The notes beneath the pieces were generated by a model. That model did not search any database and was not told where the DNA came from. It saw only the letters and a program-made list of their open reading frames with translations. Below, in pieces: positions 27,755-45,619 of a stretch of 64,000 nucleotides of DNA (positions are counted from its first letter, which is position 1; the number at the start of each line of letters is the position of its first letter). The translations under genes and the position numbers were made by a program. Location: contig NZ_AP018207.1 of the NCBI RefSeq assembly GCF_002367995.1, forward strand, positions 6,610,104-6,674,103, read 5' to 3'. The stretch comes from Calothrix brevissima NIES-22 (GTDB lineage: Bacteria > Cyanobacteriota > Cyanobacteriia > Cyanobacteriales > Nostocaceae).

Positions 27755-28477
27755 TTAAGATCCTAGCCAGTTAGCTTCCCAAGATTCGAGACTAGCTTTA
27801 TGTTCTCTCCAATCTGGCATGATGCTACCTAATGCTTTCCAAAAGGCATCTCCGTGATGGCGGTGTAATAAGTGGACTAATTCATGAGCAACTACATATT
27901 CCAACACAGCTAAAGGGGCGTGAATTAACTGCCAATTTATGCGGATTACTCCATCCTTACCGCAGGTTCCCCAAACTCGTTTTTGCTCGGAAAGCTTAAC
28001 ATCTGGGAGATTGACACCTAATTTACGTGCATAGACTTTAGCGAAGTGTTGTATATCTTGCCAAGCGCGATCGCGTTTCCAAGTAATCAACGCCTGCTCA
28101 ATCGCATCCTGTTGTTCATCTTTGCTCAACTGCTGTGGTACTTGGATGTAAAAGCGGCTTTTGCAAGTAATCATTACCTGTTCTACATCGGCTGACTCTA
28201 CCTGCAACATTAAGCGCCGTCCCCGATACATTACCTTTGCGCCACTCACATAACACTGGGGAATTTCTGGGGGATGCTTTGGGCGACAATCTTCTACAGC
28301 ATTAAATAGCCAGCGCCGTTTGCTATCGAGAAAAGCAGTAATTTTTTCTGAGGGAGTATCGGGTGGTGCAACAACTTCCACAGCTTCAGGGGTAACAACG
28401 ATGCGCTGGTTTTTGGTACGCTTACTATAGCGCACAGTGTAGGGGATGCTAGTTTGACCAATTTGCAGAACAGGCAT
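27755..28477 (-). CDS. YgjP-like (DUF45/SprT-type) metallopeptidase
   Basis: The 240-residue protein has the zinc motif VAHELVHLLHRHHGDAFW and the downstream MPDWREHKASLE of the YgjP family. The N-terminal part has beta-rich ARRMPRT-like features (RIVVTPEAVEVVAPP). Members are often found next to type I restriction genes. A role there is unproven, but one can infer turnover of restriction subunits or of stalled DNA-protein complexes. Its start overlaps the stop of the NucS-like gene by one base, so it is the distal gene of a coupled pair. Confidence 0.88.
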   Translation of the reverse strand: MPVLQIGQTSIPYTVRYSKRTKNQRIVVTPEAVEVVAPPDTPSEKITAFLDSKRRWLFNAVEDCRPKHPPEIPQCYVSGAKVMYRGRRLMLQVESADVEQVMITCKSRFYIQVPQQLSKDEQQDAIEQALITWKRDRAWQDIQHFAKVYARKLGVNLPDVKLSEQKRVWGTCGKDGVIRINWQLIHAPLAVLEYVVAHELVHLLHRHHGDAFWKALGSIMPDWREHKASLESWEANWLGS

Positions 28478-29505
28478 CAGCTTGTCTCAGGAAGGGAAGA
28501 ACTTACATCTGCTTCAAGTAATTCCTTGGCACGCTCTGAAAGCGATTTTTCTTCGCCCTCCACGGCCCAGTAGTCAGGGCCAGGGAAAGCTCCAGACCCT
28601 ACGGGAACATTATATTTTTCACAAATAGTTTTACATAACGCGCTTAAGGAATAACTCAACTCATCCAATTCCCACTTAAATTTTTGAGAAGTGAGTTGGA
28701 AAGTAGCTAGTTTGGCTTTTTCCTCAATTTTCTTAAGGTCTAATTCAAGTTTAGGCGATCGCATCAGATAAACTCGTGTGCCTTCCTGGAGAACACCGTA
28801 TTTTATCAAAGTGTTGATAGTTTTTTCTCGTCGCTGTTTAGTAGATGCTTCTCTTACAGCTTGGTTAGTCTTTTCTCTTATTTTAATTTGATAATCGGCA
28901 ACAGAAGGTAAAGGGATTATTTGTTCTAAGTTCAAAAATTGAGAACCATTAATATTGTAAATATTAACTTTTATACAACGTATATCAATTCCTCTTTCAT
29001 TAAGCCATAATACTGTTGTAGTAATCTCTTGAGAAAAGCTTGGCGCAATCAATATTATTCGAGGAGTATTACTAATAAATCCCTCTTCAAACTCTTCAAT
29101 ATCTAAAAAGCGTTTTATTTCTAGTTCTGCATTTGTAAAATCTTTTCCTGACTTAGATAGGAATTGTTCATGAGCATGGACAACAGCCTCAAAGTTCATA
29201 GCTGATACCATCGCAGCGTAGCGAATACTCTGCAATTCCAAGTGTCCGCCATCCTCGACTCGCTTTATTTCAATAACAACTAGGTTGCCCTCTTCATCTA
29301 AACCTAGTAAATCTATTCTGCGCTTACTGTCTTCCCAATTAGAAAATTCCTCGGCAATAATAAATAAACCAGGGTCAATTACTTCGGGGTTATCTCGCAA
29401 AAGTGGTTGTAAATGTTGCCGTTCTCGCCATCTTTCATTGACAAAATCACTGGGATTTATTCTTTGTAATTTCTGCTGGCTCTTATCAATTTCATAAAAT
29501 GGCAT
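28477..29505 (-). CDS. NucS/DUF91-like PD-(D/E)xK nuclease
   Basis: 342 residues. The N-terminal 150 form a restriction-endonuclease-like fold: RRIDLLGLD followed by LVVIEIKR at about 63-83, giving the D...ExK active site, as in the NucS/DUF91 family. The rest is helical with no clear match, perhaps a DNA-binding domain. Proteins of this type cut DNA at mismatches or branched ends in some lineages, but the target here is unknown. It lies 67 bases after hsdR on the same strand and is coupled to the metallopeptidase, so it is probably part of the restriction locus. Confidence 0.8.
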   Translation of the reverse strand: MPFYEIDKSQQKLQRINPSDFVNERWRERQHLQPLLRDNPEVIDPGLFIIAEEFSNWEDSKRRIDLLGLDEEGNLVVIEIKRVEDGGHLELQSIRYAAMVSAMNFEAVVHAHEQFLSKSGKDFTNAELEIKRFLDIEEFEEGFISNTPRIILIAPSFSQEITTTVLWLNERGIDIRCIKVNIYNINGSQFLNLEQIIPLPSVADYQIKIREKTNQAVREASTKQRREKTINTLIKYGVLQEGTRVYLMRSPKLELDLKKIEEKAKLATFQLTSQKFKWELDELSYSLSALCKTICEKYNVPVGSGAFPGPDYWAVEGEEKSLSERAKELLEADVSSSLPETS

Positions 29506-29572
29506 ATAACGCTTATTTTACACAATAGTAATGATTGAATGAATTGGTGATTACATTAATAATTGCAAGATT

Positions 29573-32500
29573 TCATGTTCTGAGATAGTTTTTTAGAGCG
29601 TACTCATCAACCTTACTAGGTATATCTTTCCAATTTTCTAGCTTTAAATTAAACACTAAAGCCCGAACTTTCTGCCGCAGTTCTTTACGTAACTGTTCTT
29701 TCAAATGCCAGCCAGGGGGCGCAGTTTCATCACTGGAGTAGAGTTGATCAATTGCTTGTGCTGCTTTCTCTAGGGGATTTGATTCACGATCGCAGACAGC
29801 ACTGCTAGAATCACTCTGGCTGCTATTGCCTTCACCCTGATTTACTGGCAAGAATGCTTCTAAAATTTTGAGGACACCGTAAGCTTTTTGGCTCAAGCTT
29901 GTTTGTTTATGGGCTTGTTCCGCCACTTGCATATCGCGGACGATTTGCTCATATCGCTTGAGGGTTTCGGCGGCTTCCAGTTGACCTTGTTCAAACTGGC
30001 GTAAAATTTCTAAAACTCTTTCGGAAAATGTCCCATAATATAAGGGATTCTCATCAACTTTCTGCTGCATGACTTTGCGGAGTTCGGCACTTTTGCGGAC
30101 AGCAGCAGTTTTGATTTCCTGTTGGGGCTGATTTACTGCAAAATCCTTCCAAAAATCTGGGTCGGTGATATCATGTAACTTGCAAAGTGTGGTGATGCCT
30201 GTAATATCCAGGTGTTCGTTGAGCATTTCGCGGATTTTGGCACTGACATCACGAGTTAAGGTAGATTCTTGTTTCTCAAAGGTCAGTTTTCCCAAGGGTA
30301 AAAATCCGGCTACCCATTTCAGGTCATTTCTGTAATCGAGAATCAACGGGTCAGGGCTAAGGGCATCGTAAGCTTTAATAAAGGTTCTGGCTAGACGGTG
30401 AAATTCATACCATTTATCCTCGCTTCCCAAATGCTGAATCAGGGTGTCGTATTCTTGGCGGATATCTCCGGTGTTGCGGGGGATGGGTTTAACAATTTTC
30501 ATCACCTCAGAGTGGGCGGCTTTGAGTTGGTTGCGTTCCACATCTAGGTCTTTCATAGCGTTTTTCACGTCGGCTTGGCGGTAGGTGGCTAAAGCTTCGG
30601 TGAGGTTTTTGGTAACGCCGATGTAGTCAACAATTAGCCCAAATTCTTTGTGAGAACCATAGACGCGGTTGGTACGAGCGATCGCCTGAAGTAAGTTATG
30701 TTCTTTTAAGGGGCTATCTAAATACATGACGCTTTCGCGGGGTGCGTCAAACCCAGTTAGCAGTTTATTGCAGACAATGAGGAAATGCACTGGCGGTACT
30801 TCCCCACTCTGAACTTTGGCTTCGTAGTCGGCATTTTCCCCCAGAAATTTGTTGATAGCAGCAACTTCCCCATTTTTATCCAAGGCGTATTTTCTTAAGT
30901 CTTGGCGCAGTGCTTCAATATATTTATCTTCGCTGGGTTTTGCGTCTTCTTGGTTGCTGGAATAAATGGGGACACTCATGGCTTCCGCCCAGGTTTTTGC
31001 TGTGTCTGGGTCAAAACCTTGTTTAATTAAACTTTTAGCAATGATTTTATCTAATGCCCGTTTATAAAGAATTATTGCTTCTCGGTCGATGGCGACAATT
31101 TGTGCTTTAAAGCCTTCTGGGGCTGCATGGCAGGAGAAATGCGCCCAAATGTCGTAGGCTAGTAGTTCAATGCGTTGGCGGTGTTTGACTAAATCCTCAA
31201 CTGTTACGCCTCGCGCTTTGATTTTGTTAACCAGTTCTTCTGGTTCATTCGCAAACCAATTATTAAATAGAATATCTAGTTTTTTCTCATCTACTTGCCA
31301 TTCTGCTTTAAGGCTGGTGTAACGGATGGGAACGGTAGCACCATCTGCCACAGCGTCGTCTATGCTGTAACGGTCGAGATAAGTTTCACCGGGAAGGCTG
31401 AAGTTTTGATAAGTGTCTTTGTCAGTCTTTTTAATAGGTGTACCTGTAAAGCCGATAAAACAGGCATGAGGTAAAGTTTTTTCTAAAAATGCCCCTAAAT
31501 CTTTTTCTTGGGTGCGGTGACATTCATCTACCAAAATAATCCAGTTGTGGCTATTGGCTGCGGCTGTGGCTGACTGGTCAAATTTAAAAATGGTGGAGAG
31601 TAAAGTTAAGCCGATAGGGTTGCAGTGGATGGCTGTTTGTAGTTCTTCACCAGATGTTATATGAGTGGGGTTAGGTAGTCCGCAGGCTTTAAAAGTTTTG
31701 TCTATTTGCTCATCTAAGTCGATGCGATCGCTCAGAACTAAAATGTTAGGATTTTCTAGAACTGGGGAATTGAGAGTTAGGTGGTTTTTGAGTTTGAGGG
31801 TAGCAAACACCATTGTCAGGCTTTTACCTGAGCCTTGGGTATGCCAAATCAGTCCTTTGCGATATTTGCGGTTTGGGTGTTTGGGGTCTGGTTTTAAGGG
31901 GGCAATTACTCGGTCTACAATTTTGTTGACAGCGCGAAATTGCTGATAGCGACAGACTTTTTTAATGATTTTCTGTTCTCGTTTCTCGAAGATAATGAAG
32001 TGTGCCAGGATGTCGAGTAGGCGAGAAGGTTCTAGTAAATACCAAAGTTGTTTCTCTAATTCGTTTCTAAAAGAAACCTCACCCCCTAGCCCCCTCTCCT
32101 TGGAAGGAGAGGGGGAATTTTCTGTTGTTTGGTTCCAGGTTCCCCAATAAGCTGAAGCTGCGCCTGTTGCACCGTAGAGAACATTTACGCCATTGGTGAT
32201 GATGTTGAAGGCGTTGGAGTAGAACAGGCGGGGTATATCGCGTTCGTATTGTTTAATTTGCTCAAATGCTTCTCCGGTTTTGTCTTTGGCGGTAAAGGGT
32301 TTTTTGGCTTCGATAACCACCAGGGGAATACCGTTGATGAAGATGACAATATCAGGTTTACGGGTTTGCTGGGATTGAACTGTCAACTGATTGGTAACGG
32401 TGAAGGTGTTGTTTTCGGGGTGGAGAAAGTCTATGAGGCGGATGGTTTTTTTCGTGGCTTCACCGGGAACGTTACGGCTATAGTTTCCTCGCAGCAGGTT

Positions 32501-32734
32501 TGTCCATTGTTCATTATCGGTGACTGCCAGCATATCCTGGTAGGTAGCGCGGGCGACTTCTTGGGGGATTTTGTTGATGTGTTGGATGGCGGTAATGAAG
32601 ATGTCGCGGAGGATGACTTGGTTTAGGCTGTCTCTGGCGGTTTGGTTTTGTTGGGGTGGTAGCCAAATGTAGCCGAATTTGACTAAGGCATCAATGCAGG
32701 GTTTTTCAACTAGGGTGTATTCGGAGGCTTTCAT
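29573..32734 (-). CDS. hsdR: Type I restriction endonuclease, R subunit
   Basis: The 1053-residue protein has an N-terminal nuclease domain with RKPDIVIFINGIPLVVIEAK (PD-(D/E)xK). SF2 motor domains follow with Walker A HTQGSGKSLT, DECHR, FTGTPI and the later QAIARTNRVYG. A helical C-terminus contacts the methylase core. It translocates and cuts unmodified DNA together with HsdM and HsdS. About 14 residues after GTWNQTTE (SPSPSKERGLGGEV) are encoded by an inserted palindromic repeat (32077-32115) without loss of frame. The start lies 3 bases after the DUF559 stop. Confidence 0.93.
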   Translation of the reverse strand: MKASEYTLVEKPCIDALVKFGYIWLPPQQNQTARDSLNQVILRDIFITAIQHINKIPQEVARATYQDMLAVTDNEQWTNLLRGNYSRNVPGEATKKTIRLIDFLHPENNTFTVTNQLTVQSQQTRKPDIVIFINGIPLVVIEAKKPFTAKDKTGEAFEQIKQYERDIPRLFYSNAFNIITNGVNVLYGATGAASAYWGTWNQTTENSPSPSKERGLGGEVSFRNELEKQLWYLLEPSRLLDILAHFIIFEKREQKIIKKVCRYQQFRAVNKIVDRVIAPLKPDPKHPNRKYRKGLIWHTQGSGKSLTMVFATLKLKNHLTLNSPVLENPNILVLSDRIDLDEQIDKTFKACGLPNPTHITSGEELQTAIHCNPIGLTLLSTIFKFDQSATAAANSHNWIILVDECHRTQEKDLGAFLEKTLPHACFIGFTGTPIKKTDKDTYQNFSLPGETYLDRYSIDDAVADGATVPIRYTSLKAEWQVDEKKLDILFNNWFANEPEELVNKIKARGVTVEDLVKHRQRIELLAYDIWAHFSCHAAPEGFKAQIVAIDREAIILYKRALDKIIAKSLIKQGFDPDTAKTWAEAMSVPIYSSNQEDAKPSEDKYIEALRQDLRKYALDKNGEVAAINKFLGENADYEAKVQSGEVPPVHFLIVCNKLLTGFDAPRESVMYLDSPLKEHNLLQAIARTNRVYGSHKEFGLIVDYIGVTKNLTEALATYRQADVKNAMKDLDVERNQLKAAHSEVMKIVKPIPRNTGDIRQEYDTLIQHLGSEDKWYEFHRLARTFIKAYDALSPDPLILDYRNDLKWVAGFLPLGKLTFEKQESTLTRDVSAKIREMLNEHLDITGITTLCKLHDITDPDFWKDFAVNQPQQEIKTAAVRKSAELRKVMQQKVDENPLYYGTFSERVLEILRQFEQGQLEAAETLKRYEQIVRDMQVAEQAHKQTSLSQKAYGVLKILEAFLPVNQGEGNSSQSDSSSAVCDRESNPLEKAAQAIDQLYSSDETAPPGWHLKEQLRKELRQKVRALVFNLKLENWKDIPSKVDEYALKNYLRT
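32077..32115. repeat. CCTCACCCCCTAG palindrome inside hsdR
   Basis: Reads CCTCACCCCCTAGC, then a 12-bp stem with left arm CCCCCTCTCCTT and a GG loop. It is in frame on the hsdR strand and adds SPSPSKERGLGGEV to the protein. The same unit occurs at 32758, 33321, 37951 and, in a longer relative, near 45470. Confidence 0.85.
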
Positions 32735-32737
32735 GTT

Positions 32738-33421
32738 TTAACTTTTGGGGTTGTGAACCTCACCCCCTAGCCCCCTCTCCTTTGAAGGAGAGGGGGAAGA
32801 GGAAGGGGTGGGGAGATTGGGGTTTTCGGGAGGTAGGGAATAAGGAGAGGGGGAAGAGGAAGGGGTGGGGGGATTGGGGTTTTTAGAAGGTAGTGAAAGG
32901 AGGAAGGATTGAATTTTGTTGAGAACTTCGTTGGTGTTGTAGAGGACGGCTTCGTTTGAGAAGCGTAATATTTTGTAGCCTTGAGTTTCTAGAAATTGTT
33001 GACGAATAGCATCTTCTGCTTGAGTGTATTGGTGTATTGCACCGTCAACTTCAATAATTAATTGGGCTTGGGAACACCAAAAATCAACAATGAAGCGGTC
33101 TATTGAATGTTGACGGCGAAATTTATAGCCCAAAAGTAGTCTATTACGTAGATATTGCCAAAGGTGATTTTCTGCTGATGTTGGTTTGTGGCGCATTTGT
33201 CTAGCCAGTGGCTTCAGCTTTTCCCAAAGTTCTGGTGATGTTTTCCAAATACCAACTTTTACCCTTTCTTCTCCCTCAAATCTTTCTTCTCCCTCTAAAA
33301 ACTCTTCTCCCCCACATTTCTCTTCTCCCCCCTCTCCTTTCAAGGAGAGGGGGCTAGGGGGTGAGGTCAAAAATTCATTAGTGGATGAGATTGACGAACT
33401 ATATTCTCTACGATCTGTCAT
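32738..33421 (-). CDS. DUF559 (VSR-like) endonuclease with repeat-encoded ends
   Basis: 227 residues. The DUF559 core (about 67-165) shows MRHKPTSAENHLWQYLR, FRRQHSIDRFIVDFWC, LIIEVDGAIH and ILRFSNEAVLYN, a restriction-fold nuclease related to very-short-patch repair enzymes. The first 50 residues (TSPPSPLSLKGEGGEE and Glu-rich) and the last 55 (PTPSSSPSPSKERG, duplicated) are translated from copies of the palindromic repeat. The native protein probably began near SPELWEKLKPLAR. It is coupled to hsdR (3-base gap), which points to co-expression with the restriction locus. DNA target unknown. Confidence 0.85.
   Translation of the reverse strand: MTDRREYSSSISSTNEFLTSPPSPLSLKGEGGEEKCGGEEFLEGEERFEGEERVKVGIWKTSPELWEKLKPLARQMRHKPTSAENHLWQYLRNRLLLGYKFRRQHSIDRFIVDFWCSQAQLIIEVDGAIHQYTQAEDAIRQQFLETQGYKILRFSNEAVLYNTNEVLNKIQSFLLSLPSKNPNPPTPSSSPSPYSLPPENPNLPTPSSSPSPSKERGLGGEVHNPKS
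32758..32796. repeat. Palindromic repeat at the 3' end of the DUF559 gene
   Basis: Same orientation as the hsdR copy (CCTCACCCCCTAG first on the plus strand). It is followed by a tandem duplication of GGGGGAAGAGGAAGGGGTGG-type DNA to about 32880, which encodes the Pro/Ser-rich tail. Confidence 0.85.
33321..33367. repeat. Palindromic repeat at the 5' end of the DUF559 gene
   Basis: Opposite orientation to the copy at 32758 (ends GGGGGTGAGG on the plus strand). The DUF559 coding core is therefore enclosed by an inverted pair about 530 bases apart. Confidence 0.85.
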
Positions 33422-33461
33422 AGGTTGAACAGTAAATGGCAGGAAATGGCATTTTTTGCCA

Positions 33462-33475
33462 TACTAAATTTAGTA
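33462..33475. promoter_or_regulatory. Palindrome before parD, candidate operator
   Basis: A perfect 14-bp palindrome TACTAAATTTAGTA lies 19 bases before the parD start in the divergent spacer shared with the DUF559 gene. ParD-type antitoxins repress their own promoters through such sites. The assignment rests on position and symmetry only. Confidence 0.4.
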
Positions 33476-33493
33476 AGCGCATAAGAGACACCT

Positions 33494-33745
33494 ATGAAAA
33501 GTATAAATATTTCTCTGCCTGATGTAATGCGTACTTACGTAGAGGAACAAGTGGCTAGTGGCGGTTATAGCACAGTTAGCGAGTATTTCCGTGAATTGGT
33601 GCGTCAAGACCAAAAGCGCAAAGCTGAAGAACGTTTGCAAACTTTATTATTAGAAGGTTTGAATTCGGGAAGTGCTACACCTTTAACTGACCAAGATTGG
33701 GATGATATCCGTCAAGCTGTGCAGAAAAAAATTTCTCAGCAGTAA
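33494..33745 (+). CDS. ParD-type ribbon-helix-helix antitoxin, without adjacent ParE
   Basis: The 83-residue protein starts MKSINISLPDVMRTYVEEQV with the ribbon-helix-helix pattern, then GGYSTVSEYFRELVRQDQ, typical of ParD/CopG antitoxins. A flexible C-terminus usually binds the toxin. No ParE-like gene follows: the next frame, 62 bases on, is a DUF433 protein of another toxin-antitoxin type. It is either an orphan remnant or acts with a toxin elsewhere. Confidence 0.8.
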   Translation: MKSINISLPDVMRTYVEEQVASGGYSTVSEYFRELVRQDQKRKAEERLQTLLLEGLNSGSATPLTDQDWDDIRQAVQKKISQQ

Positions 33746-33807
33746 GCTTTGAAGTTGAATAGTTACAATAAAAGTCATTATCCCAAGCGTTCCCAAAAAT
33801 CTCGATC

Positions 33808-34053
33808 ATGGATTGGCAGCAGTATATACATTCAGACCCAAAAGTTTTATTAGGGAAACCAACGGTAAAAGGTACTCGTTTATCGGTGGAATTTATACTT
33901 GGGTTGTTTGCTAATGGTTGGACACCACAGCAAGTATTAGAAAATTATCCTACTCTGACACCCGAAGCACTACAGGCAGTGTTTGCCTTTGCGGTTGAGT
34001 GTATGCAAGAAGAATCTTTTTATACTCTACCACTGTTATCTGAGACAGCGTAA
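33808..34053 (+). CDS. DUF433 antitoxin-like protein
   Basis: The 81-residue DUF433 protein has IHSDPKVLLGKPTVKGTRLSVEFIL and FANGWTPQQVLENYPTLTPEALQAV, a winged-helix-like fold found before PIN-type toxins. Its TAA stop overlaps the ATG of the downstream toxin gene. It probably binds and neutralises that protein and represses the pair. Confidence 0.88.
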   Translation: MDWQQYIHSDPKVLLGKPTVKGTRLSVEFILGLFANGWTPQQVLENYPTLTPEALQAVFAFAVECMQEESFYTLPLLSETA

Positions 34054-34409
34054 TGCGATTTTTGGCGAATGAAAATTTCCCGTTGAGGAGTGTTTTAAGT
34101 CTGCGGGATGCTGGTTATGATGTGGCGTATGGTAGCGAAGATGCACCGGGGGCTGAAGATGCGATTGTGTTGGCACGAGCAGTTAATGAGGAGAGAATTA
34201 TACTGACTTTTGACCGTGATTATGGTGAGTTAATTTACCGCTTACGGATGCCTGCCCCCATCGGTGTGGTTTATTTTCGATATTTTCCACCTACGCCAGA
34301 AGAACCAGCGCAGAATTTATTGCGGTTGTTGAGTGTTGAAGGGTTGATTTTAATAGGATATTTTACTGTTTTGGAGCGTACACAGCTGCGTCAGCGTCCT
34401 TTACCTTAA
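34053..34409 (+). CDS. DUF5615 PIN-like toxin
   Basis: 118 residues with the start MRFLANENFPLRSVLSLRDAG, then EERIILTFDRDYGELIYR. Acidic residues are in the places expected for the PIN-like nuclease fold (Asn-Glu-Asn near the start in place of the more usual Asp-Glu-Asn, and Asp-Arg-Asp in the middle). Presumed RNase toxin paired with the overlapping DUF433 gene. The pair lies inside the restriction locus, pointing the opposite way from the hsd genes, and may stabilise the region. Confidence 0.88.
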   Translation: MRFLANENFPLRSVLSLRDAGYDVAYGSEDAPGAEDAIVLARAVNEERIILTFDRDYGELIYRLRMPAPIGVVYFRYFPPTPEEPAQNLLRLLSVEGLILIGYFTVLERTQLRQRPLP

Positions 34410-34417
34410 TGTGACTT

Positions 34418-35719
34418 TTATTTATTAGGTGGTATTTCGACGCGAACGCGACCTGTGAGAAGGTCTTGCATTAGACCATGTTTTACCTTTATTAATCTGT
34501 CAAGAATTTGGTAACTGTATTTAATTGTTTTTTGAATTTCTTCAGTAGCTTGACAAATTTGTTGTTGTTCTAAAATCGGCGGGACGATCACTTGTAATTT
34601 TTCTACTACACTTTTTGTGATTTTAACCATTGAGCCGCTAGTACCAGCAGCAGCGTTTTGTAAATACCCTAAAGCGTTTGATGATGAGAGATAAATTTCC
34701 AAAAAATTATCTAGAATGATATTTTGATTGATGCGAAAACGCATTAATAAATCAGGGTACGAACAATTCTCAATTTCTCCTCTAAATAATGCAGAAAAGC
34801 CAACACGTTCACGAGTATTTGAACGGCTAATAAGGAAATCTCCTGGCTCAAGTGTGAACTCAAATACTTTTGGATCATTTATTGGTGCAGGCTTAATACA
34901 AGTCGGATTAAATCCATCGGGACTTACTGCACCTAGACTAAGAATCCAATGTCCTGTTACCTCATTAGGACAAACAGGTGAATAACCATTTTGGATGCTC
35001 TGAGACAAAAGTTGCTTAAGTTCTATAAGTTTCCAATTCTCTGGAATCTGACCGATCGCACTTTCCTTAAATTTCGTGTGACCAATACCGCGAGTGAGGA
35101 GTTGCTGGAGTAGTCCCTGCTTGACTTTGCGGGTTTGGTCGATGACAGCTTGAGTGGATGCGATCGCTTCATCCACACTGCTCAAAATCTCAGCAATTTT
35201 CTTTTGTTCAGAAAGCGGAGGTAAGGGAATTTTATATCTTAGCCAATCATCAAGTTTAAAAATCATTTTCTCAACATCTACGCCGACACTTGACTGAAAA
35301 CAAGTCTGTTGAAAATAGGTAGTATGTGAGAAATAAGCTAAATATTCTGCTAACAAGCCAGGTTTAGTGATTAATGTAGAATACTCATTTGATACAACTG
35401 CTCCATCAAGTTCTGGCGGAACTAGTCCGCAAGCTCCATGAATAATTTGTCGTCTTGATATTAGAAAGTCACCAGCATTTGTATAATATTGAGTCTTAGT
35501 AAGAATTTGTTCTCCTAAAAGTCTTTCTCTCGGAACTATCCCCCCACGGCTTCTTTTTGCTGTGACAAGTTGATACTCTTGATCATCTTGAAGTTGCGCT
35601 GGTCGTTCTACAACTTCTACTACATCATCGAAAGACTTAAAGTACCACCCTTCGGGAAGATGAGGTTTTTTAGGAATTCCTGGTTTGACGCTAGGCGGAT
35701 ATTGAGATTTACGAGCCAT
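34418..35719 (-). CDS. hsdS: Type I restriction-modification specificity subunit
   Basis: 433 residues from the ATG at 35719 (MARKSQYPPSVKPG). There are two target-recognition halves, each followed by a conserved helix: PLPPLSEQKKIAEILSSVDE near the middle and VPPILEQQQICQATEEI near the end. It sets the DNA sequence recognised by the HsdM/HsdR complex. The annotated frame is open 14 codons further upstream, but that extension is the antisense-phase reading of an hsdM-tail relic. Its start overlaps the stop of that relic by 11 bases, so coupling to it is likely. Confidence 0.9.
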   Translation of the reverse strand: MARKSQYPPSVKPGIPKKPHLPEGWYFKSFDDVVEVVERPAQLQDDQEYQLVTAKRSRGGIVPRERLLGEQILTKTQYYTNAGDFLISRRQIIHGACGLVPPELDGAVVSNEYSTLITKPGLLAEYLAYFSHTTYFQQTCFQSSVGVDVEKMIFKLDDWLRYKIPLPPLSEQKKIAEILSSVDEAIASTQAVIDQTRKVKQGLLQQLLTRGIGHTKFKESAIGQIPENWKLIELKQLLSQSIQNGYSPVCPNEVTGHWILSLGAVSPDGFNPTCIKPAPINDPKVFEFTLEPGDFLISRSNTRERVGFSALFRGEIENCSYPDLLMRFRINQNIILDNFLEIYLSSSNALGYLQNAAAGTSGSMVKITKSVVEKLQVIVPPILEQQQICQATEEIQKTIKYSYQILDRLIKVKHGLMQDLLTGRVRVEIPPNK

Positions 35720-35792
35720 AACCGAGTTCCTCCAAAAATCCCAACATCTTCGCCTCAGCAATATCTTGCTTAACCACTAACTTTGTCACCAC
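35709..35792 (-). pseudogene. hsdM 3'-end relic (27-codon frame) before hsdS
   Basis: A small frame starts GTG-GTG and ends with AEAKMLGFLEELGYGS, which matches the true HsdM C-terminus AEAKMLGFLKELGYE. At DNA level 35717-35759 and 37259-37301 agree at most positions. It ends inside the hsdS start region, as an intact hsdM tail would. It is either a scar of an hsdM duplication or a retained coupling leader for hsdS. Confidence 0.75.
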
Positions 35793-35832
35793 CCTCAACT
35801 TTACCCTGCCAATTTCTCAACCAAACTTTAAA
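35793..35832 (-). pseudogene. Rpn-family gene 3'-end relic
   Basis: Reading IFKVWLRNWQGK in phase, it resembles the end of the intact Rpn gene (DFQIWLGNLQGE). The plus-strand DNA TCACCACCCTCAACTTT continues the match past both ends. Too short to be functional. Confidence 0.6.
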
Positions 35833-35865
35833 TATTAACTAACATCAAAAACCCAAACCTTTTTA

Positions 35866-36282
35866 TCATACCTCTTGAGCAGAATGTAACCTTTCCTCAT
35901 TCCCAATCTCACCAACTATCTTCCCATCTTGCACAAAATAACTTTTAATCACATTCTCCCCTCGGTCATCCAAACTTTTATCACGTTTTTTAAACTCATC
36001 CAGCACCTTAAAAAAACAATTAAACGCCCTACTTTCATCACCTGTAAACAATAAAATAATATTCGCCCAAGAATTAGAAGTCCGCACATTAAAATATCTT
36101 TCTATCCAAGCATGGAAATGCTCATAAAAATCAACTTCCTCATCAGTCAGTTCCAAACCTAACTCACTGCGAGCAAATTCATAACCTGTTAAAAAATGAC
36201 TTAATATAGTAATAGAAGACTTACCAATATACATTCCTGGTTTGTCTTTTATTTTTTCCAAAACTGCATAAATGCCTCCCAT
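35866..36282 (-). CDS. Unrecognised 138-aa protein in the restriction locus
   Basis: MGGIYAVLEKIKDKPGMYIG opens the protein, followed by SSITILSHFLTGYEFA, an acidic helix (LTDEEVDFYEHFHAWIERYF) and a conserved-looking SNSWANIILLFTGDESRAF. No catalytic motif or membrane segment is seen. The KPGMYIG opening recalls small proteins annotated near toxins or as immunity-like, but I cannot name a family. It lies 27 bases after the Rpn gene on the same strand and sits in the stretch that separates hsdM from hsdS, so it is probably cargo of the duplication event. Confidence 0.6.
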   Translation of the reverse strand: MGGIYAVLEKIKDKPGMYIGKSSITILSHFLTGYEFARSELGLELTDEEVDFYEHFHAWIERYFNVRTSNSWANIILLFTGDESRAFNCFFKVLDEFKKRDKSLDDRGENVIKSYFVQDGKIVGEIGNEERLHSAQEV

Positions 36283-36309
36283 TACAACCTCCTAACTTTC
36301 TCACCACCC

Positions 36310-37257
36310 TCAACTTTCCCCCTGCAAATTCCCCAGCCAAATTTGAAAATCTTCCACAGAGGAGAAATCTAACAAAGCCTCACTCAAATCTTCTAACTGC
36401 GCTAACTTCAATTCCCGCACTTGCGCCTCAACTTCCGGGGTAACTTCTCCCAACTTCCGCTTAAGCAGACGAATCACAATAGAAACTTCTCCCTCTCGCT
36501 TCCCTTGCTCAATCCCCTGTTCAATCCCCTGCTCAATTCCCTTTTGCATCCAACTGGTGACAATCTGCATAACTTCCTCCCGTGCTTCTGGTTCAATCCT
36601 ACCAAGTTCCTCTTCAAAGGCTTGTTCCTCTGCATCTGTAAGTTTTAAATACGTATCCACAAAACCTGATATTAACTGCATTCTGGCAGGGTCTAACCGC
36701 AGTGTCACCAACAACCGCAAACATTCGGCTTTGACTTTGGGACGGTCAGCAGGTGCAATCTGCATTTTTGCCATTAATGCACTCGCCACTGGGTTAGCTT
36801 GTCCTAAATAATTACGCCAATTGAGTTGATTTAATTGAATAACCCGATAATTAAAGTTTAATACCTCAAATTCGGGAAATTCTACTTTAAATTGAGTTGC
36901 AGCCGCTTGCTTTGGCTGGTCATAAGAAAACACCACAATCGGATAAATTGGCAAATCGTACTTTTCAAATAAACGCGCAAAATAACGAAACATTCGTTTA
37001 CCAAAATCTGCTTGTGCTTTGGCTTGGTTCTCTACATGAATCAAAAAATAAGATGGTTGACCACGGAACTTTACCTGCACCAGTAAATCCGCCTCATAAC
37101 GTTCCCCTGCTGTTACATCTGTAAATACTTCCTTATCCAAAAACACTAATGTATTTGGTTCTAGATAAGCGATGACATCCGGTACAAATAGCTCAAGAAA
37201 CTCTAGAAAAAAAGTTGAAATGAGTTCTTTAAATAAGCGATCATGATCAATCATCAC
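36310..37257 (-). CDS. Rpn/DUF4351-type PD-(D/E)xK nuclease
   Basis: About 315 residues. The N-terminal nuclease-like domain (DHDRLFKELISTFFLEFLEL, YEADLLVQVKF, FLIHVENQ) belongs to the Rpn / transposase-31 group. A tandem GIEQGIEQGIEQGKREGE stretch leads into a C-terminal DUF4351 (VIRLLKRKLGEVTPEV). Such proteins promote recombination in E. coli relatives and are very abundant in cyanobacteria. Starts GTG 37257 and ATG 37254 both overlap the hsdM stop, giving tight coupling. A relic of a second copy's 3' end lies at 35793-35832. Confidence 0.88.
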   Translation of the reverse strand: MMIDHDRLFKELISTFFLEFLELFVPDVIAYLEPNTLVFLDKEVFTDVTAGERYEADLLVQVKFRGQPSYFLIHVENQAKAQADFGKRMFRYFARLFEKYDLPIYPIVVFSYDQPKQAAATQFKVEFPEFEVLNFNYRVIQLNQLNWRNYLGQANPVASALMAKMQIAPADRPKVKAECLRLLVTLRLDPARMQLISGFVDTYLKLTDAEEQAFEEELGRIEPEAREEVMQIVTSWMQKGIEQGIEQGIEQGKREGEVSIVIRLLKRKLGEVTPEVEAQVRELKLAQLEDLSEALLDFSSVEDFQIWLGNLQGES

Positions 37258-38867
37258 TCATAACCCAATTCTTTTAAAAATCCCAACATCTTCGCCTCAG
37301 CTTTATCCCGCTTCGCCAACAATTCCTTTAAAACCTGCACTTCCGCCGCCACATCAATCTGTTCTTCCTCCTCAGCCGTCTGCACATATCGGGCAATATT
37401 GAGATTAAAATCATTCTTCTCAATCTCTGCTAAATCCACCACCCGCGCAAACCGTTCTGCATCCGCAAACGCCAAAAACGCCTTAACCAACCGTTCCACA
37501 TTCGCCTCAGAGAGAGTATTTTGGTTTTTCCCCTCCACCATCTCCTCAGCACCATTGACAAACAGCACCTTACTCCGCCGCTTGGCTTCCTTCTGCTTGT
37601 TAATAATCAACACACAAGCCGGAATCCCTGTGCCATAAAATAAATTTGGTGCTAACCCAATCACCGCCTCAATCAAATCATCTTGCAAAATTCCCTGGCG
37701 GATTTTCGCCTCCGCACCCCCGCGAAACAGAATCCCGTGCGGTAAAACCACACCCAACTTACCAGTTTCATTCAAACTAGCAATCATGTGCTGCACAAAT
37801 GCCAAATCACCATAGGATTTAGGCGGACAACCATAAGTATCCCGGCTAAACTTATCCCCATTTTTCCAAGCTTCATCTCCCCAATTCTTCAAAGAAAACG
37901 GCGGATTTGCCAGCACTCGGTCAAATTTTTTTAAAACACCTTTTCCTTGCTTCTCTTCTCCCCTCTCCTTACCAAGGAGAGGGGTAGGGGGTGAGGTTTC
38001 TAAATGCTTCGGTTCCCGCAAGGTATCCCCCCGCAGAATAAACGCATCATCAATATCATGGAGAAACAAATTCATCTCACAAATTGCCCAAGTGTTGAGG
38101 TTCATTTCCTGACCGTACAACTGCAACGAATTGGGATTTTTCCCCTGACGCTTGAGATAATTCACCGCCTCCAGTAACATACCCCCAGAACCACAAGTAG
38201 GGTCATAAATGCTCATCCCCTCATCTGGTTGTAAGCACATCACAATTAAGCGAGTCACCATCTTGGGAGTGTAAAACTCGCCTCCCTTCTTCCCTGCATC
38301 ATCAGCAAATTGAGAAATCAGATATTCGTAAGCATCCCCCAGAATATCCGCCTCAACATCACAATTCCGCAGACGATGCTTGCTAAAGTGCTGCAACAAT
38401 AACTCTAATGTCGCATCGGGGAAGCGTTCTTTATTGTTAAAGTCCACATCCTGAAATACTCCCCGCAGCCGAGTATTTGCATCTTCAATTGCCCGGAAAG
38501 CTGCGTTAAGATTTTCACCAATATTCGTGGAATGCTTCCTGATGTCATGCCAAAACGCCCCAGGTGGAATGTGAAAGCGGTGTTCTTCTGGGTCAGCCGC
38601 TAATTCCGCATCTTGATAAAGTTTCAGCCGTTCCTCATATTCTTCTTCCCAGACATCACACAACCGCTTGAAGAACAGCAACCCAAAAATGTAGTGTTTG
38701 AAGTCTGCTGAGTCAATCTTTCCGCGCAAAATGTCCGCCGCATCCCACAGATGCTTTTCTAGCTGCTGTTGGGTGATTTTGCCAACATAGGTCAGGGGTA
38801 GCTCAACAGAGGTAGTAATTTCGACCCTAGATATTTTTCGACTCACTCTTAACGATTTCTCCAGCAC
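37254..38867 (-). CDS. hsdM: Type I restriction-modification methylase subunit
   Basis: 537 residues from a GTG at 38867. The N-terminal HsdM domain (QQQLEKHLWDAADILRGKI) is followed by the N6-adenine methyltransferase with SAM motif DPTCGSGGMLLE and catalytic NPPF. It methylates the site chosen by HsdS to protect host DNA. About 15 residues (TSPPTPLLGKERGEE) between the motifs are encoded by an in-frame palindromic repeat (37951-37997). The first 30 residues before the conserved TQQQLEKHLW are unusual, and the true start may be an internal GTG at 38846. It leads the operon hsdM-rpn-138aa-hsdS. Confidence 0.92.
   Translation of the reverse strand: MLEKSLRVSRKISRVEITTSVELPLTYVGKITQQQLEKHLWDAADILRGKIDSADFKHYIFGLLFFKRLCDVWEEEYEERLKLYQDAELAADPEEHRFHIPPGAFWHDIRKHSTNIGENLNAAFRAIEDANTRLRGVFQDVDFNNKERFPDATLELLLQHFSKHRLRNCDVEADILGDAYEYLISQFADDAGKKGGEFYTPKMVTRLIVMCLQPDEGMSIYDPTCGSGGMLLEAVNYLKRQGKNPNSLQLYGQEMNLNTWAICEMNLFLHDIDDAFILRGDTLREPKHLETSPPTPLLGKERGEEKQGKGVLKKFDRVLANPPFSLKNWGDEAWKNGDKFSRDTYGCPPKSYGDLAFVQHMIASLNETGKLGVVLPHGILFRGGAEAKIRQGILQDDLIEAVIGLAPNLFYGTGIPACVLIINKQKEAKRRSKVLFVNGAEEMVEGKNQNTLSEANVERLVKAFLAFADAERFARVVDLAEIEKNDFNLNIARYVQTAEEEEQIDVAAEVQVLKELLAKRDKAEAKMLGFLKELGYE
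37951..37997. repeat. Palindromic repeat inside hsdM
   Basis: Stem CCCTCTCCTT / AAGGAGAGGG with loop ACC, followed by GGGGGTGAGG. Orientation is opposite to the hsdR copy, so it is read in another phase and encodes TSPPTPLLGKERGEE. It falls just before the catalytic NPPF motif, evidently in a tolerant loop. Confidence 0.85.
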
Positions 38868-45394: not shown

Positions 45395-45619
45395 GGGGCG
45401 AGGTTACCCCCATTAGTGTCAACTTAAGCTAAAAGCTATATACGGCGCGTGTTGTACAAAAACTTTCGCCCTCATCCCCTAACCCCTTCTCCCCCAGGAG
45501 AAGGGGAATTAAATCTCTTGCTCCCCTCTCCCGGTGGGAGAGGGGCTGGGGGTGAGGGCAAAAAGCTTGCTACAAAGCGGGTTTCACGTTAAGTTGACAC
45601 CTATGGGTAACCCCGCCCC
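45395..45619. mobile_element. Nested palindromic element (MITE inside a hairpin repeat)
   Basis: Outer arms GGGGCGAGGTTACCC (45395-45409) and GGGTAACCCCGCCCC (45605-45619) are halves of one hairpin separated by about 190 bases. The insert is itself bounded by 12-bp inverted repeats GTGTCAACTTAA (45416-45427) and TTAAGTTGACAC (45589-45600), with TA on each side. Inside it lies the CTCATCCCCTAACC...GGTGAGGG palindrome family also found in the hsd genes, in two stems. No coding capacity. Confidence 0.65.

What the first reader, a model, noticed from the sequence alone, without database searches (positions are those of the whole stretch)
32077..37997. One palindromic repeat has entered three restriction genes in-frame
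Copies of a CCTCACCCCCTAG...CTCTCC/GGAGAGG palindrome lie inside hsdM (37951-37997) and hsdR (32077-32115) and at both ends of the DUF559 gene (32758-32796, 33321-33367). Frame is kept in every case, in both orientations, adding SPSPSKERGLGGEV- or TSPPTPLLGKERGEE-type peptides. This is analogous to the Rickettsia palindromic elements that live within coding genes. Four copies in 6 kb suggest recent activity limited to tolerant loops.
Basis: partly seen in the sequence, partly recalled or inferred. Interest (0 to 1): 0.75.

Follow-up and report, generated by a model that had tools for sequence, protein, structure and literature searches.

The report
Palindrome-bounded DUF559 nuclease entering genes in-frame
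Short palindromes found inside bacterial restriction genes look like the ends of a selfish DNA element built around a small DNA-cutting gene (DUF559), which can insert itself, reading frame intact, into other genes, and this offers a testable candidate for what moves such palindromes.

Summary
They are insertions: a congener's type I R-M island (Nostoc carneum, 93-96% DNA identity in its main blocks) lacks all four; 0 of 57 HsdM and 0 of 59 HsdR orthologues carry the peptides. DUF559 genes often sit between such palindromes: both sides in 13 of 28 Nostocaceae loci against 0 of 30 DUF433 controls; likewise in other cyanobacteria, plasmids and viral contigs. Whole units lie in-frame in R-M methyltransferases, PriA and IspE; one PriA pair gives a 432-bp (net) occupied/empty site with 90 identical upstream bases. 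Besides DUF559 itself (3hrl), the only solved relative found by profile is a mobile-intron protein. Best reading: the palindromes are terminal repeats, or leftover halves, of a DUF559 homing-like element. That DUF559 drives movement is inferred, not shown; 11 of 28 loci lack qualifying hairpins. The exact palindrome occurs nowhere else in this 9.26 Mb genome, so recent activity in this genome is unproven.

The parts
32077..32115 (+). Half element (CCTCAC... tag plus hairpin) in-frame inside hsdR; encodes SPSPSKERGLGGEV on the hsdR strand
32732..33417 (-). Whole inserted unit: palindrome - DUF559 gene - palindrome, absent from the N. carneum island. L102 aligns to window 32731 and resumes at 33418; ends approximate
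32757..32803 (+). Left inverted palindrome of the unit, CCTCAC tag outward; 47-nt arms 91% complementary to the right one; DUF559 C-terminus
33321..33367 (-). Right inverted palindrome of the unit, tag outward; DUF559 N-terminus
32738..33421 (-). DUF559 (PF04480) nuclease gene, 227 aa; domain residues 68-174; E-x-D-G..H motif intact
32785..32897 (+). Two 56-nt tandem copies (91% alike, 57 apart) in the DUF559 C-terminal coding end, each starting with the palindrome's right arm
   Evidence: D3
37951..37997 (-). Half element (variant) in-frame inside hsdM, just before the FDRVLANPPF motif; encodes TSPPTPLLGKERGEE; 15-residue net insertion
29573..32734 (-). hsdR, 1053 aa (HSDR_N, SWI2_SNF2, T1R_D3-like)
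34418..35719 (-). hsdS (Methylase_S)
37254..38867 (-). hsdM, 537 aa (HsdM_N, N6_Mtase); start codon uncertain
45468..45559 (.). 92-bp two-hairpin element with CCCTCA/TGAGGG ends: one copy of the host's own related dispersed family

Best explanation
The palindromes are terminal inverted repeats of a mobile unit whose coding part is a DUF559 nuclease: tag + hairpin - DUF559 - hairpin + tag, about 430-830 bp. The unit inserts beside or in-frame inside genes, often R-M methyltransferases. Single halves (as in hsdR and hsdM here) and two-hairpin copies without nuclease are non-autonomous derivatives or leftovers after the nuclease is lost. SHOWN: palindromes and DUF559 co-occur far beyond controls; gene plus both palindromes are present or absent as one block (window vs L102; PriA L307 vs L306); several units are in-frame in conserved genes; halves occur in-frame in the same kinds of genes. 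INFERRED: DUF559 cleaves an empty site, or single-stranded hairpin DNA, and repair copies the unit in, homing-style; the hsdR and hsdM halves came from the neighbouring unit by local spread or decay. In-frame copies persist because only frame-preserving ones leave the host gene working.
For: Association: Nostocaceae DUF559 loci have hairpins (arms >=9) within 300 bp on both sides in 13 of 28 and on any side in 17 of 28 (shuffle expectation 0.003 and 0.35); DUF433 controls 0 and 2 of 30; the same loci shifted 900 bp 0 and 2 of 27. Other sets, both/any: phylum 9 and 14 of 25; plasmids 4 and 8 of 12; viral contigs 8 and 18 of 25 (shifted control 1 and 2 of 26). Looser test: 14 of 28 both sides against 0 of 30. 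Block insertion: window vs N. carneum. PriA: L307 vs L306 have 90 identical upstream bases and a 432-bp net insertion ending CCCCTCACC...GGTGAGGGG; other net gains 438 and 444 bp, all multiples of 3. Outermost CCTCA-type tags face outward on both sides in 11 of the 13 loci that have them on both sides, of 65 examined. 23 long open frames holding DUF559 match, beside it, DNA methyltransferase/R-M families (13), PriA (5), IspE (2), radical SAM (2), a UvrD-type helicase (1). Seven PriA-lodged DUF559s separate from nine others at 97/94 support, while two genomes with identical 330-residue PriA stretches differ in carrying the unit. Profile hit to PDB 3r3p 'Mobile intron protein', E 3.1e-6; 15 columns are invariant in 30 aligned domains. 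Host: of 5 DUF559 matches 4 were listed, and 3 of these lie beside palindromes.
Against: No movement was observed, and I read no nuclease assay of these proteins. 11 of 28 Nostocaceae DUF559 loci show no qualifying hairpin, so the link is not universal. Orientation varies: some DUF559s lie between two whole two-hairpin copies in direct orientation, and one host copy has tags facing inward. Most copies of the host's own family are far from DUF559: of 42 sampled loci only L004 holds one. 32 of 36 core sites elsewhere have no DUF559 within 500 bp. Empty sites are not base-perfect: about a dozen bases of L306 have no counterpart in L307. No target-site duplication was recognised. The PriA tree has a row cut short by my script (L269) on the PriA side.
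Confidence: 0.68

Rival explanations
1. The palindromes are independent MITE/REP-like elements moved by some other enzyme; DUF559 genes are a favoured landing place or a passenger between two copies.
For: 32 of 36 core sites have no DUF559 within 500 bp; some DUF559s lie between two whole elements in direct orientation, as passenger capture would leave.
Against: Occupied/empty pairs show gene plus both ends present or absent as one block; outward tags in 11 of 13; controls rarely show such flanks; no Y1 (RAYT-type) gene of the host lies within 6 kb of the palindromes listed (one search listed 50 of 77).
Confidence: 0.2
2. One reading: an RPE-like palindromic element recently active on its own in this genome, limited to tolerant loops.
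For: In-frame copies in loops, missing from a 93-96% identical island.
Against: The exact sequence occurs only here in 9.26 Mb and in none of 7 other genomes of the genus; two of the four copies are the ends of a nuclease unit.
Confidence: 0.08
3. Ordinary proline-rich linker sequence or terminator-like hairpins, ancestral to the proteins.
For: The HsdR loop is variable and tolerates indels.
Against: Absent from 57 of 57 HsdM orthologues and from all 11 cyanobacterial HsdR loci examined; near-identical DNA in unrelated genes and both orientations.
Confidence: 0.02

Closest known systems
REP elements with RAYT transposases (REPtrons, REPINs; PMC3733652 passages and section 16 read, PMC3116915 listing and abstract start only)
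   Same: Short palindromes dispersed in genomes, single or paired in opposite orientation, flanking a small nuclease/transposase gene; some inside genes
   Different: Enzyme is DUF559, not an HUH tyrosine transposase; no GTAG in the 39-nt core or the 92-bp host element; no Y1 gene within 6 kb of the listed host palindromes
Rickettsia palindromic elements (as described in PMC3733652 passages)
   Same: Palindromes inserted in-frame in genes that likely encode functional proteins
   Different: Sequence relation not tested; here a candidate mover gene is found inside the ends. That paper states that CGTC repeats, which include Rickettsia families, are not associated with transposase genes
EDxHD homing endonucleases such as I-Bth0305I, PDB 3r3p (PMC3943268 passages; PMC9403480 passage assigns a DUF559 gene to EDxHD; that 3r3p is I-Bth0305I is recalled)
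   Same: Profile similarity E 3.1e-6; occupied and empty alleles at one fixed site
   Different: Most units here are bounded by palindromes and lie in the host protein's frame or stand free, with no splicing domain recognised; only profile positions 35-104 align
VsrA of Caulobacter, a DUF559 protein (PMC12907096 passages)
   Same: DUF559 protein on which a DNA-damage response depends in vivo
   Different: Read there as mismatch repair; 'palindrom' is not found in that text
Cyanobacterial MITEs and small dispersed repeats (Nezha named in a PMC3733652 passage; Elhai 2008 recalled)
   Same: Non-coding short inverted-repeat elements
   Different: No link to DUF559 in what I read

Membership tests
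REP/RAYT (REPtron) | Palindrome with GTAG tag | tested here: not met
   39-nt core and 92-bp host element hold no GTAG or CGTC on either strand; the hsdM variant holds one GTAG inside GGGGTAGGGGG
REP/RAYT (REPtron) | Flanks or lies near a Y1 tyrosine transposase gene | tested here: not met
   7 Y1_Tnp matches in the host, nearest listed palindrome about 6.5 kb away; one search listed 50 of 77 palindromes
Rickettsia palindromic elements | In-frame palindromes inside coding genes | tested here: met
Rickettsia palindromic elements | Sequence homology to RPE families | not tested
EDxHD homing endonuclease | Sequence relation to I-Bth0305I | tested here: met
   hmmsearch of A1 hits 3r3p at 3.1e-6 over positions 35-104 of 106
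EDxHD homing endonuclease | Fold match | not tested
   structure prediction switched off
Homing endonuclease element | Site-specific invasion of an empty allele | tested here: inconclusive
   Same PriA site, one nuclease group, occupied and empty siblings; gain versus loss not distinguished
Homing endonuclease element | DNA cleavage of the empty site | not testable with these tools
   needs biochemistry
Terminal-inverted-repeat mobile element | Terminal inverted repeats at both ends | tested here: met
   47-nt arms 91% complementary in the window; outward tags in 11 of 13 loci with tags on both sides, of 65
Terminal-inverted-repeat mobile element | Target-site duplication | tested here: inconclusive
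   None recognised by eye; no systematic search
Intein | Hint splicing domain around the nuclease | tested here: inconclusive
   Only L280 reads intein-like, by eye; no Hint or intein family matched it at E 1e-5 in Pfam or NCBIfam

The most novel reading that the evidence does not exclude
DUF559 proteins, found here in several bacterial phyla and in viral contigs, are the movers of a so far unnamed class of selfish element: a homing-type nuclease with palindromic hairpin ends that inserts in-frame, without a recognisable splicing domain, into conserved genes (R-M methyltransferases, PriA before Walker A, IspE), recurs at the same site in related lineages, and decays to leave in-frame palindrome scars. 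Many in-frame palindromic repeats whose mover is unknown would then be the remains or riders of such nuclease units.
Probability: 0.45. Interest if true: 0.9.

Novelty: new variant of a known kind. Interest (0 to 1): 0.8.

Why it matters
What moves palindromes that live in-frame inside bacterial genes is open at least for some classes: PMC3733652 reports that CGTC repeats have no associated transposase gene. A concrete, widespread candidate enzyme with a solved relative, occupied/empty allele pairs and a defined unit makes that testable at the bench. It would also give DUF559, which Pfam still calls a protein of unknown function, a biological role, and explain odd proline-rich inserts in restriction enzymes and in PriA.

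Tried and rejected
Rejected: (1) 'The palindrome is generally active in this genome': exact core only at this locus. (2) A high-copy donor as the simple source: the exact core is in 25 of 388 class genomes (own included), at 1 to 9 copies except 47 in G344; no donor was identified. (3) RAYT partner: no Y1 gene near the listed palindromes. (4) A single-protein scan of viral contigs found no relative; the alignment scan kept 80 loci, of which I tested the 30 best; 25 were usable.

Limits: DUF559 loci L159-L188 and L239-L263, and the DUF433 controls, are best-scoring matches, not random samples; L178 and L179 were dropped as contig ends. Plasmids: I fetched 12 of 39 records, chosen for taxon spread, leaving out E. 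coli, Neisseria and Pseudomonas. The tag count sees only CCTCA-type tags. In one search, 36 of 37 core loci were usable (<=1 mismatch); its 19 genic sites are fewer genes (L062 and L082 lie in one frame, L067 and L084 in one gene). The 20 frames given to Pfam are 16 of those 19 (L052, L077, L082 left out) plus 4 frames cut by contig ends (L050, L059, L063, L078). The 42 host sites are about 32 distinct elements. R-M background: 231 Eco57I matches in 24 genomes of about 114 Mb, roughly 0.7% of DNA if 3.5 kb each (my assumption), against at least 8 of 28 core loci in such frames. The 23 in-frame DUF559 hosts were chosen because their frames are long; they are examples, not a rate. PriA reading: 29 of 30 loci read (L299 not parsed).

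Searches behind 'not found in print': open PMC subset only. 15 papers there hold DUF559; I read passages of two of them, the others by listing alone.

Full report
WHAT WAS CLAIMED AND WHAT IS THERE. The window is G000:C1:6610104-6674103 of an unnamed 9.26 Mb genome in the same genus as Nostoc carneum NIES-2107, since congener G001 has the coordinates of that record (lineage). The palindromes are at the stated places, in open frames that Pfam calls HsdR, DUF559 and HsdM. Shuffled windows give none.

THEY ARE INSERTIONS. The N. carneum island (L102) aligns to window 27766-38800 in blocks of 93.5, 96.4, 90.1 and 95.3% identity, with 33750-35031 and 35235-35721 unaligned, and lacks every palindrome. 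HsdM: 0 of 57 orthologues spanning the site have the peptide, and the insert is 15 residues. HsdR: 0 of 59 loci have it. One sphingomonad HsdR (L139) has a different palindrome pair in the same loop, so that loop accepts such elements independently.

THE DUF559 GENE IS PART OF THE ELEMENT. L102 aligns up to window 32731 and resumes at 33418 with two bases between. So the DUF559 gene and its two palindromes form one block with 47-nt, 91% complementary ends, placed at the start of hsdR.

COPY NUMBER. The exact core is found 3 times in the genome, all here; among 8 genomes of the genus only here (<=1 mismatch); in 22 of 217 family genomes, own included (<=1 mismatch); and exactly in 25 of 388 class genomes, own included. 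The host also has a related family, 59 tag sites at 3 mismatches and 77 hairpins in all; 0 of 42 sampled sites are inside genes. The four in-frame copies are therefore a local matter, not a genome-wide burst.

ASSOCIATION WITH DUF559. Palindrome and DUF559 searches were separate, yet places coincide. Tested formally: hairpins on both sides of DUF559 in 13 of 28 Nostocaceae loci (expected 0.003 by shuffling) against 0 of 30 DUF433 loci from the same set of 118 genomes and 0 of 27 shifted windows; on any side 17 of 28 against 2 of 30 and 2 of 27. Phylum set 9 of 25 both sides; plasmids 4 of 12; viral contigs 8 of 25 with 1 of 26 in the shifted control. Of 44 hairpins counted in the looser test, 38 lie within 250 bp of the domain. 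Plasmid loci with bracketing hairpins include Sphingomonas, Novosphingobium and Deinococcus. Against it: 11 of 28 Nostocaceae loci have none, and 2 of 12 plasmid loci have none at the threshold.

ARCHITECTURE. Two layouts recur: DUF559 between two halves with tags facing out (window, L159, L166), and DUF559 between two whole two-hairpin elements in direct orientation (L162, L173, L182, L188). Of 65 loci, 13 have CCTCA-type tags on both sides: 11 out/out and 2 in/out. Ends of the form CCCTCA(C/T)CCC...GGG(A/G)TGAGGG occur from Nostocaceae to the distant family f45 (probably Gastranaerophilaceae, my inference).

IN-FRAME UNITS. I read 23 DUF559 loci chosen for their long open frames. Pfam and NCBIfam find beside DUF559: DNA methyltransferase or R-M families in 13 (Eco57I L219, L220, L221, L273, L275, L279; MmeI L271, L277; type ISP L272, L274; DUF1156 L278; N6_N4_Mtase L280, L281), PriA in 5 (L264-L268), IspE in 2 (L269, L283), radical SAM in 2 (L270, L282, DUF559 at the C-terminus) and a UvrD-type helicase in 1 (L276). 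In L219-L221 and L279 the bracketed DUF559 lies upstream of the DPACGSG motif. Synechocystis plasmid loci show DUF559 splitting PglX and DUF1156 genes (annotation and reading frames). L280 looks intein-like by eye, but no Hint family matched.

OCCUPIED AND EMPTY ALLELES. In f45 PriA (190 of 191 genomes matched) siblings are empty, occupied or carry short remnants (29 of 30 loci read). G776 and G785 have identical 330-residue PriA stretches, but only G776 has the unit; upstream DNA is identical for 90 bases and the net insertion is 432 bp, with about a dozen bases at the empty site unmatched; L304 and L284 give 438 and 444. The seven PriA-lodged nucleases fall apart from nine others (97/94), with one row cut short by my script as caveat. 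Gain and loss are not told apart.

SINGLE PALINDROMES IN GENES. Outside the host, 19 of 36 core sites are at least 60 codons inside open frames and 4 of 36 are within 500 bp of a DUF559. Of 20 frames scanned, 12 match R-M methyltransferase families (L061, L062, L063, L067, L068, L069, L074, L076, L078, L080, L084, L085), three of which also hold DUF559; the others are a helicase, two NACHT proteins, biotin carboxylase, a Mu portal, two AMP-binding enzymes and MnmE.

THE ENZYME. Thirty aligned domains share 15 invariant columns, among them E, D, G, H, F and Q positions. Against the PDB the profile finds 3hrl 'Endonuclease-Like Protein' (5e-37) and 3r3p 'Mobile intron protein' (3e-6); the next row is at 0.056. 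PMC9403480 (passage) places a DUF559 gene in the EDxHD homing family; PMC12907096 (passages) shows a DNA-damage response that depends on a DUF559 protein in Caulobacter.

READING. Shown: palindrome-bounded DUF559 units present or absent as blocks, in-frame in several genes, and strong association. Inferred: DUF559 drives it by cutting, and halves are derivatives. The hsdR copy is 98% identical to the DUF559 left copy over 43 nt, which fits local spread from the unit, in this or an earlier host.

NOVELTY. No paper in the searched library was found to link DUF559 with palindromic repeats; most subscription journals are absent. The parts (homing nucleases, REPtrons, MITEs) are known kinds; their combination as a palindrome-ended, in-frame element without a recognised splicing domain appears new.

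Noticed in passing
L139, HsdR site: A Sphingomonadales HsdR has two CCCCTCCCCTTCAGGGGAGGGG-type palindromes around a short spacer in the same loop as the window's insert: independent use of one loop.
   Followed up: partly
L280 (G240:C1:48500-55500): DUF559 inside what looks by eye like an intein in a DNA methyltransferase at its CGSGT motif; no Hint family matched.
   Followed up: partly
window 33494-34409: ParD-like gene and a DUF433/DUF5615 pair between hsdR and hsdS; the ParD-like gene aligns to the N. carneum island, while 33750-35031 does not.
   Followed up: no
window 35717-35776 and 37259-37318: 82% identical 60-nt repeat, one copy at the hsdS start region and one at the hsdM 3' end (D2).
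   Followed up: no
L346, L347 (Synechocystis sp. B12 plasmids): DUF559 genes split PglX (after DPTMGSGAF) and a DUF1156 gene, i.e. fractured methyltransferases.
   Followed up: partly
G627, 8 DUF559 matches in about 2.0 Mb: Some genomes of family f45 carry many DUF559 copies, a possible place to catch active spread.
   Followed up: no
L050-L052: Related genes of three genomes carry the palindrome peptide at the same place; L050 and L051 match NACHT.
   Followed up: no
L271, L273, L274, L275, L278: R-M genes with a DUF559 unit also carry further in-frame palindrome-type peptides at other sites.
   Followed up: no
L269: One open frame holds two DUF559 domains around an IspE.
   Followed up: no
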